A stretch of DNA of 64,000 nt from Anaerolineales bacterium (lineage in GTDB: Bacteria; Chloroflexota; Anaerolineae; Anaerolineales; Villigracilaceae), in NCBI GenBank assembly GCA_015075275.1, contig JABTUU010000001.1:620001-684000 (forward strand). Direction: 5' to 3'. Made by a program: the position numbers and the translations under genes. The notes under the pieces were generated by a model, which saw only the letters and a program-made list of their open reading frames with translations, did not search any database and was not told the DNA's origin. Positions 60,328-64,000 of this stretch are shown here, in pieces; within the stretch, counting starts at the first letter, position 1, and every line of letters begins with the position of its first letter.

Positions 60328-61650
60328 ATGTTTGAGAATTTAACCTCACGACTTAATCAAGTATTTGACCAACTGCGCCGACGCGGCAAACTCTCCGAAG
60401 CGGACGTGGACGCGGCGATGCGAGAAGTTCGCCTCGCCCTGCTCGAAGCGGACGTGCATTTCAGCGTCGTCAAAACATTCATCGCGCGCGTGCGTGAACG
60501 CGCCGTTGGCGCTGAAGTATCGAAGGCGTTGGTGCCTGGTCAACAAGTCATAAAGATAGTCAACGAAGAATTGATCGCCACTCTCGGCGAACCTGCGCCG
60601 TTGAAATTTTCAGGACCTAAGCCGCATGTGATCATGATGGTCGGTTTGCAAGGTTCGGGTAAAACGACTCACGCAGGCAAGATCGCAAAGATGCTGCGTT
60701 CAAAAGGGGAGCGGGTGATGCTCGTTGCGGGCGACCCGTATCGTCCCGCCGCAGTGACTCAGTTGCAACAACTCGGCGAACGTATTGATGTCCCTGTTGA
60801 ATCGGATTTGAACGTCAAGCCGCCCGAACTCGTGGGGCGCGCGTTCGAAAAAGCCCAAAAGGGCGGATACGGCGTCGTGATCGTGGACACAGCTGGACGG
60901 TCGCAGTTGGACGCGGAGTTGATGAGCGAGTTAAAGTCCATCGTGGCGAAAGTCCCGCCTGTGGAAACTCTGCTTGTGGTCGACTCCATGATCGGACAAG
61001 AGGCGTTGAACATCGCGCAAGGATTCCGCGATAATGTTTCGATCACGGGTTTGGTGATGACGAAAATGGACGGCGACTCGCGCGGCGGCGCGGCGATCTC
61101 GATCCGTTCGGTGACGGGCGTGCCGATCAAGTTTATCGGCACGGGCGAAAAACTCGACGCGCTCGAAACGTACGACCCCGCGCGCTTGTCGTCGCGCATT
61201 TTGGGCATGGGCGACATGATCGGCTTGATCGAAAAAGCCGAAGCCGCGTTCGATCAGGAAGTGGCGCAAAAATCTGCCGAGCGCATGATGAAGGGACAGT
61301 TCTCGCTCGAAGACTGGCTCGACCAGATGAAGCAAATGAAAAAGATGGGACCGCTCGCGCAGATCATGGACATGTTGCCAGGGCAAATGGGACAAGCCGC
61401 GCGTCAGATTGACCCGAAGGATATCGAAAAGAATTTCAAGCAGACCGAAGCGATCATCCATTCGATGACATTGAAAGAACGTCGCGACCCCGATATTTTG
61501 AACGCCTCACGCCGACGTCGCATCGCCGCTGGCTCAGGCATGGAAGTGCAGGACGTGAACCGCTTGATCAAACAGTTCCGTGAAGCACAGAAGATGATGA
61601 AGATGTTGACGAAGACGGGAGGAAAAGGGTTGGGGAGGTTGTTTGGGTAA
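60328..61650 (+). CDS. ffh: signal recognition particle protein Ffh (SRP54)
   Basis: GTPase that binds signal sequences and SRP RNA for cotranslational membrane targeting; 440 residues. The N domain is residues 1-90; the G domain has GLQGSGKTTHAGKIA near residue 106, VDTAGRSQLD and TKMDGDSRGGAA. The Met-rich M domain follows (DQMKQMKKMGPLAQIMDMLPGQMG and RRRRIAAGSGMEVQDVNRL), split here only by a normal loop. ATG 60328 matches the family start MFENLTSRLNQVF; an upstream in-frame TTG would cross the promoter. Its last 68 bases are repeated downstream. Confidence 0.96.
   Translation: MFENLTSRLNQVFDQLRRRGKLSEADVDAAMREVRLALLEADVHFSVVKTFIARVRERAVGAEVSKALVPGQQVIKIVNEELIATLGEPAPLKFSGPKPHVIMMVGLQGSGKTTHAGKIAKMLRSKGERVMLVAGDPYRPAAVTQLQQLGERIDVPVESDLNVKPPELVGRAFEKAQKGGYGVVIVDTAGRSQLDAELMSELKSIVAKVPPVETLLVVDSMIGQEALNIAQGFRDNVSITGLVMTKMDGDSRGGAAISIRSVTGVPIKFIGTGEKLDALETYDPARLSSRILGMGDMIGLIEKAEAAFDQEVAQKSAERMMKGQFSLEDWLDQMKQMKKMGPLAQIMDMLPGQMGQAARQIDPKDIEKNFKQTEAIIHSMTLKERRDPDILNASRRRRIAAGSGMEVQDVNRLIKQFREAQKMMKMLTKTGGKGLGRLFG
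61582..61649 (+). repeat. ffh 3' end, copy 1 (within the gene)
   Basis: The original 68-bp unit beginning GAAGCACAGAAG and ending TTGTTTGGGTA, which encodes the last 22 or so residues of Ffh. Two further copies follow at 61752 and 62000. Confidence 0.9.
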
Positions 61651-61653
61651 CCA

Positions 61654-61745
61654 ATGTCATTGCGAGCGGAGCGAAGCAATCTCCTCGCCGTGTTAGAGAT
61701 TGCTTCGTCGCAATGGCGCTAATGCGCCACTCCTCGCAATGACAT
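61654..61745 (+). repeat. nested palindromic repeat between ffh-tail copies 1 and 2
   Basis: The outer arms ATGTCATTGCGAG (61654-61666) and CTCGCAATGACAT (61733-61745) are exact complements; the inner arms GAAGCAATCTC (61673-61683) and GAGATTGCTTC (61696-61706) also pair. No coding potential. Repeats of this GTCATTGCGAG..GAAGCAATCTC type are, from memory, common in many bacterial and Chloroflexota genomes. Confidence 0.85.
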
Positions 61746-61751
61746 GGATGC

Positions 61752-61819
61752 GAAGCGCAGAAGATGATGAAGATGTTGACGAAGACGGGAGGAAAAGGGT
61801 TGGGAAGGTTGTTTGGGTA
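61752..61819 (+). repeat. ffh 3' end, copy 2
   Basis: A 68-bp copy of the end of ffh with only two mismatches to 61582-61649, including the stop codon position. It begins six bases after the palindromic repeat. It has no start codon of its own and is not a gene. Confidence 0.9.
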
Positions 61820-61999
61820 GGGTTAGTTGGATAGTTTGTTAGTCTGATAGTCGCTTGGTCGTGGTTTGGCGGGACGCTACGCAGTCCCTGCCTCAGTTCG
61901 TAAAAGTCGGCTGGAAGCCGACTCGCTCATCAGTCCGAAGGGCTTCTATGTGCTGAGCCGCCGGGTTGAGCTTGTCGAAACCAGGCGGCTTTAGCCTAC
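61820..61999 (+). repeat. intergenic repeat-like segment between ffh-tail copies 2 and 3
   Basis: About 180 bp without a gene. It contains a hairpin GTCGGCT/AGCCGAC (61906-61922) and GAGCTTGTCGAAACC, phrases that look like dispersed intergenic repeats. It separates the second and third ffh tails as the palindrome separates the first two. Confidence 0.5.
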
Positions 62000-62054
62000 G
62001 ATGAAGATGTTGACTAAGACGGGAGGCGAGGGGTTGGGGAGATTGTTTGGGTAG
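62000..62054 (+). repeat. ffh 3' end, copy 3 (diverged)
   Basis: A 55-bp copy (GATGAAGATGTTGACTAAG to TTGTTTGGGTAG) with about six mismatches to copy 1, again ending at the Ffh stop codon. It abuts the 3' end of the HEPN-type gene on the other strand. Confidence 0.85.
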
Positions 62055-62786
62055 TTAGCTAAATACCGCGAAAACATTCTGAGCCAAGAACTCAATATGT
62101 GCTTCTACATTGAGTTTGCCAATCTTTATGGAATTTGGGTGGCCGCAAGAGTTTCGCAAATTAAGACTTGTATTTTTTAGGTGTTCTTTGACATTCTTGT
62201 TCAGAATAGATAGCGCCCCCAAAATGTCCAAGAAATCCGATTCCTTCATTCTCGTAAAATCATCACGATTTGTTGCTGGTTTCCACCTTGCATCACGTCT
62301 ATTTGCTTCACGATTGAAGTCTGACAAGTGATTCGCTATCACGAAATCATATAAAACTGAAATTGCTCCAATCCAGATAAATACAACTGCGGCTTTATAA
62401 GCATCAACATTGAGACACGTAATTGCTTCTTTTACAAATGCTTGGGAATCGGTATTCTTAATGGCTGACAGAAGTACACGTAAATCCGCTGACATAATCT
62501 TCACTGAAGATGGTTGATTCAAGTGGTTTTCTTTTACATACCTTTTGCCATCATTTGCAAGAATCCAACCATCTTTTACTCTCACAGCTAAGCCATTGGC
62601 TTTTGTGAGCGAATCGGAAACATTCCAGTTTTCCGCTTCATGCAAGCCCGACTCTATAGCTAATTTTTTTACGTCCGCTGATTGTAGAGGCTTTTCGTTC
62701 GCCGCATTAAGTATTAGGAGCAACTTATCGCGATTCGATATTTCTGTAGAAGCCAGCATATTTGATAACTCGTAGTTGGAAATCAA
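62055..62786 (-). CDS. HEPN-motif protein with N-terminal winged-helix-like region, candidate defence or toxin effector
   Basis: About 243 residues. GGAGG stands five bases before TTG 62786, chosen as start; GTG 62792 is also possible. Residues about 15-95 look like a winged helix (LLLILNAANEKPLQSADVKKLA and VRVKDGWILANDGKRYV). The C-terminal half is helical, with VVFIWIGAISVLYDF, the MKESDFLDILGAL block and LRNSCGHPNS, an R-x4-H motif typical of HEPN ribonucleases, then VEAHIEFLAQNVF. Such domains act in toxin-antitoxin and abortive infection systems; this use is inferred. Last gene of a three-gene operon, visibly more AT-rich than its surroundings. Confidence 0.75.
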   Translation of the reverse strand: MISNYELSNMLASTEISNRDKLLLILNAANEKPLQSADVKKLAIESGLHEAENWNVSDSLTKANGLAVRVKDGWILANDGKRYVKENHLNQPSSVKIMSADLRVLLSAIKNTDSQAFVKEAITCLNVDAYKAAVVFIWIGAISVLYDFVIANHLSDFNREANRRDARWKPATNRDDFTRMKESDFLDILGALSILNKNVKEHLKNTSLNLRNSCGHPNSIKIGKLNVEAHIEFLAQNVFAVFS

Positions 62787-62801
62787 GTCCACCTCCGTTT
62801 A

Positions 62802-63347
62802 TTAATTTGTTTCTTTCTTACTTGACTTGCGTTTAGGTCTCGGTTTGTTTTCGTCAAGTAGCCGCTTTACTTCCTTTTCATTGGGGAGTGCCTCTACAAT
62901 CTTTTTACCTAATAGAGTAATCTTTTTGTATCCCTTATCGCCTACGCTCATAAAAAATCTACTACGCTGTGCGGCGTTGTTGACAGTTTTTGTGATATTT
63001 CCAAAAACCTGACCCGTTGCTGCTTCTCTGTTCAGTCCTTCTAAATCTGCCGTCTTAAATAGTTCTTGTTTTCTGTACATAGTCAGGTAATATGCTAAGA
63101 CAGTCACAGCCTCTGCATCATTCTTGGTTTTCTTTGAAAATACAAAGTCTTGAAGATTCGGATGATTCTCATTCGACTCAGCGCTTTGTTCCTTAAGAAG
63201 GGAGGTGGTTAAATTACCAGAATCCTTAAACCATGCGGATGCGGATAAAAGCACAAACTTTCTCTGCTCTTCATTCAAAGGCGTGATGAGCTCTACAACC
63301 TTTTTCAAGACATCCTGAACTGAATCAAAATCTGAGGTTGTTCCCAT
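62802..63347 (-). CDS. uncharacterised protein with C-terminal winged-helix-like region
   Basis: A 181-residue protein; ATG 63347 follows AAGGA by six bases (TTG 63353 is an alternative). The N-terminal half is helical (DVLKKVVELITPLNEEQRKFVLLSASAWF). Residues about 95-160 (YYLTMYRKQELFKTADLEGLN, then KGYKKITLLGKKIVEAL) look like a winged helix, and the tail is strongly basic (KPRPKRKSSKKETN), which suits nucleic acid binding. I do not recognise the family. It lies 16 bp before and 15 bp after its two operon partners. Confidence 0.7.
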   Translation of the reverse strand: MGTTSDFDSVQDVLKKVVELITPLNEEQRKFVLLSASAWFKDSGNLTTSLLKEQSAESNENHPNLQDFVFSKKTKNDAEAVTVLAYYLTMYRKQELFKTADLEGLNREAATGQVFGNITKTVNNAAQRSRFFMSVGDKGYKKITLLGKKIVEALPNEKEVKRLLDENKPRPKRKSSKKETN

Positions 63348-63362
63348 TTTCAATCCTTCTTA

Positions 63363-63749
63363 TTACTTTAGAATCTTTTCAACTTCACTGATTAAGAAAG
63401 TTGGGGCAATTTCGTAACCAGATTCTGTGCGGACAATAATATTCTTCTTGGTTAGCTCGCCTAGTTTTGGCCTGACGGTGCCTCCAGGGAGTTTCGTACC
63501 CGACTCAATCTCACTAGGGGAAAGGCTGGCTGTTATTTCTTGGTTTATAAGAGAAATTACCTTACGAGCAAGTATATAAATTAAAATTAACTGCAAGGAG
63601 GTTAGGTTCTTTACCTTTTCCGTAAAGGCTATAAGATCGTTTTCAGGATCAAGCCATACAAACGGTTCTAGAATATCAGCCAAACGTTGCTTAGTTTCAA
63701 GTTCAAATTGAGCCTTGGGGCGTATTAATTTTGCAAATGGGTCAGTCAT
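63363..63749 (-). CDS. winged-helix protein, first gene of the HEPN operon
   Basis: A 128-residue protein from ATG 63749, with AAAGGA seven bases upstream. After a helical start it has a clear winged-helix region (ASLSPSEIESGTKLPGGTVRPKLGELTKKNIIVRTESGYEIA, positions 63411-63536 on the minus strand), like MarR/ArsR-type or adaptor wHTH domains. It could be a regulator or antitoxin for the downstream HEPN protein. The frame remains open upstream as far as a TGA at 63984-63986, so a longer product cannot be excluded, although only a GTG at 63902 could start it. Confidence 0.7.
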   Translation of the reverse strand: MTDPFAKLIRPKAQFELETKQRLADILEPFVWLDPENDLIAFTEKVKNLTSLQLILIYILARKVISLINQEITASLSPSEIESGTKLPGGTVRPKLGELTKKNIIVRTESGYEIAPTFLISEVEKILK

Positions 63750-63769
63750 TTCAAATCCTTTGAGTATTT

Positions 63770-63787
63770 TGTCACAAACATGTAACA
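63770..63787. promoter_or_regulatory. possible operator upstream of the HEPN operon
   Basis: TGTCACAAACATGTAACA is an imperfect palindrome of the form TGTnACA-N4-TGTnACA, about 20 bases before the first start codon. A site in that place could be bound by the winged-helix protein itself. Confidence 0.35.
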
Positions 63788-64000
63788 TATCATTTGTGTT
63801 ATTCACTTTCTGGTTTGGGATTTTACGCAGAAGGAAATGTTTTGCCAATATTAAGGAATAGCTCCACAATAGCAATAGTGATTTCGATATTCTTAGGCAC
63901 ACCTGTTCTCGCAGTTTTCCGAATTTAGTTTTTTCAATTAAATCATGAGCAAAGATTACAGTGGCTTCTTCTCCCTCCTCTCTTCACACTGAATTCACAA
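63788..64000. other. AT-rich stretch at the window edge, no confirmed gene
   Basis: On the minus strand a stop-free frame (63983 to 63750) runs in phase into the winged-helix gene and could encode helical sequence (LREQVCLRISKSLLLL), but it has no good start codon. It may be a displaced gene end or chance. Nothing else is recognised. Confidence 0.3.

What the first reader, a model, noticed from the sequence alone, without database searches (positions are those of the whole stretch)
61582..62054. The 3' end of ffh is present three times, each spaced by a different repeat segment
The last 68 bp of ffh recur at 61752-61819 with two mismatches and, more diverged, at 62000-62054. Between copies 1 and 2 is a nested palindromic repeat; between 2 and 3 a different repeat-like segment. 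Each copy ends exactly at the Ffh stop codon. This resembles repeats that insert at a gene end and recreate it, or repeated segmental duplication that carries a repeat along. The increasing divergence (2, then about 6 mismatches) suggests successive events, the outermost being oldest.
Basis: seen in the sequence. Interest (0 to 1): 0.62.

Follow-up and report, generated by a model that had tools for sequence, protein, structure and literature searches.

The report
Gene-end-duplicating DNA insertions at ffh
In this Anaerolineales bacterium and its relatives, foreign DNA keeps arriving just behind essential genes together with a replacement copy of the gene's last few dozen bases, so the gene stays whole and its old ends pile up downstream like growth rings.

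Summary
In detail: the 3' end of ffh occurs three times, at 61582-61650, 61752-61820 and 62001-62054, separated by a nested palindrome and by a second repeat segment.

It is not a local oddity. At least seven further Anaerolineales genomes carry displaced ffh ends, up to four behind the working one. Some enclose toxin-antitoxin or other cassettes between ffh and rpsP. The window's own genome shows the same layout behind at least three other genes: a class-III aminotransferase, methylmalonyl-CoA mutase and a saccharopine-dehydrogenase-like gene. Empty sites in relatives show that the outermost old end is still joined to the ancestral downstream DNA.

Displaced ends differ from the working end mainly at synonymous sites (60 against 22; neutral expectation about 28%). 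They are therefore other alleles of the gene, not freshly made local duplicates. One cassette is 98% identical in two species whose flanking gene differs by about 11%.

Best reading: integrase-free insertion, homologous on the gene side and illegitimate on the other. Incoming DNA replaces the gene's end and pushes the old end downstream. The closest precedent is 'insertion with long target duplication' of restriction-modification genes.

The parts
60328..61650 (+). ffh (signal recognition particle protein, 440 aa); its working 3' end is copy T0
   Evidence: TIGR00959 E 2e-169; frame
61582..61650 (+). T0: functional ffh end, stop TAA 61648-61650
61651..61751 (.). spacer 1: REP-like nested palindrome (type A), outer arms 61654-61666/61733-61745, inner arms 61672-61683/61696-61707; half-sites dispersed in the genome
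   Evidence: the same kind of spacer sits between ffh ends in G002 and G004
61752..61820 (+). T1: displaced ffh end, homologous from -66, two synonymous differences from T0, stop TAG
61821..62000 (.). spacer 2: type B repeat segment (TAGTTGGATAG tract, GTCGGCTGGAAGCCGAC hairpin, ...GGCTTTAGCC end); similar segments follow ffh or a displaced ffh end in G010, G011, G013, G014, G021, and precede one on contig C11 of G004
62001..62054 (+). T2: displaced ffh end, homologous from -52, five differences from T0 (4 synonymous), stop TAG; the left limit -52 recurs in G013, G014, G004 (contig C11) and twice in G021
62055..63902 (-). three ORFs of unknown family (245, 183, 179 aa), presumably older cargo of the ffh-rpsP hotspot; outside the window follow a two-component system and rpsP

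Best explanation
The three ffh ends record repeated insertion of foreign DNA behind ffh. In each event DNA from a related genome, carrying its own ffh 3' end plus whatever lay behind it (palindromic repeat, repeat segment or a small gene cassette), became joined to the resident gene. On the gene side the join was homologous, so ffh received a foreign but functional last 50-110 bp. On the far side the join was illegitimate and fell inside the resident gene's own last bases, so the resident end was displaced downstream together with everything behind it. A plausible molecular route is a break in the gene end, invasion of a foreign ffh allele, copying of its end and neighbour, and end-joining or microhomology closure to the other side of the break. 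No recombinase is needed. Once two ends exist they are homologous landing pads, so cassettes can be added or lost by ordinary homologous recombination and arrays build up with the newest insert next to ffh. Shown: the copies, recurrence at ffh and other genes, empty sites, synonymous divergence, cassette transfer, and absence of an integrase in the cargo examined. Inferred: break repair, illegitimate closure, route of DNA entry.
For: Displaced ffh ends in G000, G002, G004, G007, G013, G014, G021, G146, plus an ffh -260..-221 fragment in L155. Ancestral order is ffh-rpsP. In G007 a BrnT cassette sits between two ffh ends and the second end abuts the ancestral rpsP leader. In G000 itself: aminotransferase end with a BrnT/CopG pair between; mcm end with a Phd-YefM/PIN pair between; saccharopine-dehydrogenase-like end with an ABC transporter pair. 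mcm: relatives G011 and G002 have the empty site, and the DNA after the displaced end in G000 matches G011's. The mcm cassette is 98% identical in G013, whose displaced end and downstream DNA differ; the mcm end attached to it in G000 departs from sister G011 from about -132 onward. Synonymous bias: ffh first-displaced pairs 26 syn/7 nonsyn; with the other loci 60/22; p about 3e-17 against 28% neutral and 8e-8 against 44%, my rough estimate for one constrained and one free copy. Left limits vary (-52, -65 to -70, -102, -107, -108, -186). No tyrosine recombinase lies near these loci and no serine resolvase was found. ComEC is present.
Against: Left limits at ffh cluster at -52 and -65 to -70 across species, which random illegitimate joins would not give unless there were few founding events that then spread, or microhomology (CGCGAAGCGC shared by type B and ffh fits the -69 class only). 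In the window's own locus T0 and T1 differ at two sites only, too few to exclude a local duplication there. The allele switch in the working end could be placed for mcm only, and that stretch of mcm is hypervariable. The rearrangement has not been observed directly.
Confidence: 0.6

Rival explanations
1. Site-specific integration, as with prophages that integrate in icd: elements carry a substitute gene end in their attachment site and a recombinase integrates them, restoring the gene; the inserts are remnants or trans-mobilised cassettes.
For: Element-borne gene ends with synonymous differences and a displaced resident end are what such integration leaves; left limits at ffh recur at -52 and -65 to -70; one mcm cassette moved recently between species at the same site.
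Against: No integrase in the inserts examined; the five tyrosine recombinases of the genome lie elsewhere and no serine resolvase was found. Unrelated genes are used, each with its own end; limits vary for the same gene. No ffh end of this type in 2.9 million viral contigs with one degenerate exact pattern.
Confidence: 0.12
2. In-place tandem or segmental duplication of the ffh end with a repeat carried along (unequal crossing-over or slippage), followed by decay of the extra copies.
For: G000 T0/T1 and G007 T0/T1 are nearly identical (two differences each); type B shares CGCGAAGCGC with ffh, a possible site for unequal exchange.
Against: The spacer is not itself repeated after the next end, as a simple tandem duplication requires; at the clean sites the displaced end abuts ancestral DNA; divergence is mainly synonymous.
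Confidence: 0.13
3. Palindromic REP-like repeats transpose to gene ends and generate long target duplications; genes are passengers.
For: 3 of 12 intact palindromes (type A at ffh; type C at HsdS and at the aldehyde dehydrogenase start) are flanked by long direct repeats, against 2 of 300 random sites.
Against: Many displaced ends enclose no such palindrome. The genome's Y1 (RAYT-like) transposase genes checked have neither the type A nor the type C motifs within 700 bp; two are flanked by other palindromes. Most of the twelve intact palindromes lack a clear long flanking repeat.
Confidence: 0.1

Closest known systems
Insertion with long target duplication of restriction-modification genes (Nobusato et al. 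2000; Furuta et al. 2010, as summarised in PMC3874152 and PMC3031569)
   Same: Insert flanked by direct repeats of the order of 100 bp and of variable length, made of target-gene sequence; addiction-type cargo; no transposase; empty site in relatives
   Different: Cargo here includes type II toxin-antitoxin pairs, ordinary genes and bare repeats; repeated insertion builds arrays at one gene end; the two repeats are diverged alleles (synonymous bias) rather than copies of one target sequence
Integrase-free hotspots driven by homologous recombination in flanking core genes (Oliveira et al. 2017, PMC5635113) and Neisseria minimal mobile elements
   Same: Changing cargo at one intergenic site between conserved genes, no recombinase, housekeeping recombination suffices
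   Different: Those replace one cassette by another between two intact homologous flanks; here cargo is added and each event leaves a displaced gene end
Homology-facilitated illegitimate recombination (e.g. PMC3240628)
   Same: One homologous and one illegitimate join
   Different: Known mainly as a laboratory reaction; here inferred from natural genomes, at gene 3' ends, iterated
Prophage e14 / phage 21 integration in icd (from general knowledge)
   Same: Incoming DNA supplies a substitute gene end with mostly synonymous differences, old end displaced
   Different: No integrase, no fixed core, many target genes, cargo as small as about 100 bp
Integron cassette arrays (from general knowledge)
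   Same: Successive small cassettes including toxin-antitoxin, newest next to the fixed platform
   Different: No integron integrase near the locus; attC sites not tested; the platform is the end of a housekeeping gene

Membership tests
Insertion with long target duplication | relative with a single copy of the target and no insert (empty site) | tested here: met
   mcm: G011, G002 against G000; ffh: G008, G015 against G007
Insertion with long target duplication | flanking direct repeats of order 100 bp, variable length, made of target sequence | tested here: met
   52 to 186 bp
Insertion with long target duplication | insert is a restriction-modification unit | tested here: not met
   The two spacers in the window hold no gene; elsewhere BrnT, PIN and Phd-YefM pairs, ABC transporter and others; a methyltransferase-like ORF lies beyond the displaced aminotransferase end
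Insertion with long target duplication | both repeats derive from the one resident target sequence | tested here: not met
   Differences mainly synonymous, 60 against 22; at mcm the working end is a foreign allele. Inconclusive for the window's own T0/T1 (2 differences)
Site-specific integrative element | recombinase gene in or next to the element | tested here: not met
   Genome-wide PF00589 and PF00239 searches; ORF lists of inserts
Site-specific integrative element | constant crossover core | tested here: inconclusive
   Two recurring left limits at ffh, others at -102, -107, -260; different genes share no evident core
Integron | integron integrase and attC recombination sites | tested here: inconclusive
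   No tyrosine recombinase near the locus; attC folding not tested
REP/RAYT system | transposase (RAYT) flanked by the same palindrome family | tested here: not met
   Four Y1_Tnp genes in the genome, none with type A or C motifs within 700 bp
Homology-facilitated illegitimate recombination | one homologous and one non-homologous junction in a single event | tested here: inconclusive
   mcm: allele switch near -132, non-homologous joint at about -108; one case, hypervariable stretch
Homology-facilitated illegitimate recombination | dependence on uptake of linear DNA and RecA | not testable with these tools
   ComEC present but competence unknown

The most novel reading that the evidence does not exclude
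Anaerolineales capture and trade small cassettes, many of them toxin-antitoxin pairs, by an integrase-free route in which a break in the 3' end of a housekeeping gene is repaired by copying a foreign allele's end plus its neighbour, and the resulting displaced gene ends serve as a self-made, general recombination platform (an integron-like array without an integrase) at many genes.
Probability: 0.3. Interest if true: 0.72.

Novelty: new variant of a known kind. Interest (0 to 1): 0.52.

Why it matters
Many bacterial hotspots of gene gain have no recognisable integrase, and to my knowledge the mechanism of 'insertion with long target duplication' has stayed open. Here the flanking gene ends lie in a coding frame, so their divergence can be read: they are alleles, not duplicates. 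That turns a descriptive pattern into a test of mechanism (foreign end copied together with cargo versus target duplicated on the spot), and it offers a search signature, displaced 3' gene ends, for finding recombinase-free gene acquisition and its order of events in other genomes.

Tried and rejected
1) 1044-aa ORF C1:470218-473352 with a displaced 3' copy: rejected, it looks like a diversity-generating retroelement variable/template repeat pair with accessory and reverse transcriptase ORFs downstream (read by eye). 2) Matches at C1:950.5-957.6 kb are a CRISPR-like array. 3) Several local 3' matches are tandem paralogues with matching 5' ends. 4) Allele-switch mapping within ffh was uninformative because divergence there is even along the gene. 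5) One degenerate exact pattern for an ffh end found nothing in viral contigs. 6) The three ORFs after the last ffh end have no family (one weak CARF-like hit, E 0.0024). 8) Literature: the library lacks Furuta et al. 2010; no paper pairing Anaerolineae with REP sequences was held.

Full report
OBSERVATION. The window lies at C1:620001-684000 of a 2.88 Mb, two-contig genome; its closest named relatives are metagenome-assembled Anaerolineales. The last 68 bp of ffh recur at 61752-61819 with two mismatches, and the last 54 bp at 62001-62054 with five. Homology ends at the stop codon each time. The first spacer is a nested palindrome, the second a different repeat segment.

RECURRENCE AT FFH. Ffh was located in 92 of 101 relatives and the downstream DNA of 40 of them was read. 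Using each genome's own ffh end as query, extra same-strand copies lie downstream in G002 (+166), G014 (+252), G013 (+213), G007 (+703), G004 (+853, +1020, and one more on contig C11) and G021 (+1318, +1512, +1719, +6182). One more case in another genus, L146 = G146, has +1206. L155 has an ffh fragment (-260 to -221) behind a PIN-type cassette. Most relatives read have one end only, so this is not a fixed feature of ffh.

ANCESTRAL STATE AND EMPTY SITES. In several relatives ffh is followed within 36-212 bp by rpsP. In G007 the order is ffh end, a 0.7 kb cassette with a BrnT toxin gene (PF04365), a second ffh end, then the same rpsP leader that directly follows ffh in G015 and G008. The insert therefore entered within ffh's end, the gene got a substitute end, and the old end stayed with the ancestral downstream DNA.

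CONTENTS OF INSERTS. G000: bare palindrome (type A), bare repeat segment (type B). G002: type A. G013, G014: type B. G004: a small ORF plus an aspartyl-protease-like ORF; type A; a PIN toxin pair followed by type B. G021: PIN toxin pair; type B twice; 4.4 kb with three ORFs. G146: a 346-aa ORF that reads as an acyltransferase (my reading). No recombinase was seen.

OTHER GENES IN THE SAME GENOME. 1.98 Mb of G000 was put together from fetched stretches and each ORF's last 150 bp compared with its surroundings. Besides ffh, displaced ends follow a class-III aminotransferase (C1:736342-737670; spacer 581 bp with a CopG/BrnT pair), methylmalonyl-CoA mutase (C2:89423-91075, minus; spacer 655 bp with a Phd-YefM/PIN pair, then rplI) and a saccharopine-dehydrogenase-like gene (C1:747498-748706; 2.3 kb with an ABC transporter pair; displaced end 170 bp at 86%). 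A weaker case is an HsdS gene with a type C palindrome between (72%), and the start of an aldehyde dehydrogenase is duplicated for 39 bp around the same palindrome. In relatives, G6PD of G012 and a DinB-like gene of G004 show displaced ends. Gene names without a family search are my reading of the translations. Mirror-image duplications of gene starts are rarer (1 clear in G000, 2 in relatives), but outside ffh I do not claim the difference is significant.

THE COPIES ARE ALLELES. For seven independent pairs of working and first displaced ffh ends, differences are 26 synonymous to 7 nonsynonymous; adding the aminotransferase, mcm and saccharopine-dehydrogenase-like loci gives 60 to 22. Neutral expectation is about 28% synonymous, and about 44% by my rough estimate if only one of the two copies is free to drift; the pooled data reject both (p about 3e-17 and 8e-8). 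Most of the divergence thus arose while both sequences were ends of working genes. Local duplication followed by decay does not give this.

ONE TRANSFER CAUGHT. The mcm cassette of G000 is 98% identical over 655 bp to one at the same place in G013, although mcm itself is about 89% identical between them. The displaced ends and the DNA behind them differ between the two species: rplI leader in G000, a different cargo in G013. In G011 and G002 the site is empty. G000's mcm follows its sister G011 up to about -132 and then switches to another allele, while the displaced end starts at about -108. Foreign end and cargo therefore seem to have come in together, with the far junction inside the resident gene's end. 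That stretch of mcm is hypervariable, and part of the working end (-46 to -29) differs between G000 and G013, so this is suggestive, not proof.

MECHANISM. The most economical account is one homologous join (in the gene) and one illegitimate join (at the displaced end's left limit), for example repair of a break in the gene end by copying a foreign allele and its neighbour. Left limits vary: -52, -65 to -70, -102, -107, -108, -186. At ffh the -52 class always follows type B, and the -69 class in G021 fits a 10-bp identity (CGCGAAGCGC) between type B and ffh, so these classes may each descend from few founding joins that then spread by homologous recombination between ffh ends. A recombinase is not excluded but is unsupported: five tyrosine recombinases lie elsewhere, no serine resolvase was found, and the targets are unrelated genes. 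Palindromes take part more often than chance (3 of 12 against 2 of 300) but many inserts have none, and no matching transposase was found.

KNOWN RELATIVES. [quoted passage not shown] see also PMC3031569). Integrase-free hotspots with recombination in flanking core genes are established (PMC5635113), as is homology-facilitated illegitimate recombination (PMC3240628, abstract). The present case combines these and adds arrays, toxin-antitoxin cargo and evidence that the repeats are alleles. It meets the structural criteria of insertion with long target duplication but not the idea that one target was duplicated, so it is a variant, not a plain member.

LIMITS. Only 69% of the genome was scanned; the search used one identity threshold; most relatives are draft metagenome assemblies; for the window's own T0/T1 pair two differences cannot by themselves separate import from local duplication.

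Noticed in passing
G000 C1:470218-474200 (fetched stretch L234): Likely diversity-generating retroelement: variable repeat at the end of a 1044-aa protein, adenine-rich template repeat, accessory and reverse transcriptase ORFs.
   Followed up: partly
G000 C1:950477-957704: Long CRISPR-like repeat array.
   Followed up: no
G000 C1:996056-996149 and C1:740158-740251: A second palindrome family (AGACCTGACAGGT...ACCTGTCAGGTCT) flanked by long direct repeats of HsdS and aldehyde dehydrogenase sequence.
   Followed up: partly
window 62055-63902: Three minus-strand ORFs without family; the third has a weak CARF-like match (E 0.0024).
   Followed up: partly
region between ffh and rpsP in the genus (L041-L080): A two-component system and a small membrane-protein ORF lie behind the variable cargo in most genus members but are absent in G007, G008 and G015.
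   Followed up: no
G000 C1:299498-299842 and C1:1299773-1300117: Short Y1 transposase genes flanked by their own GC-rich palindromes (CCCCGAAGGGG and CCCGCACGGGG), typical of RAYT/REP pairs.
   Followed up: partly
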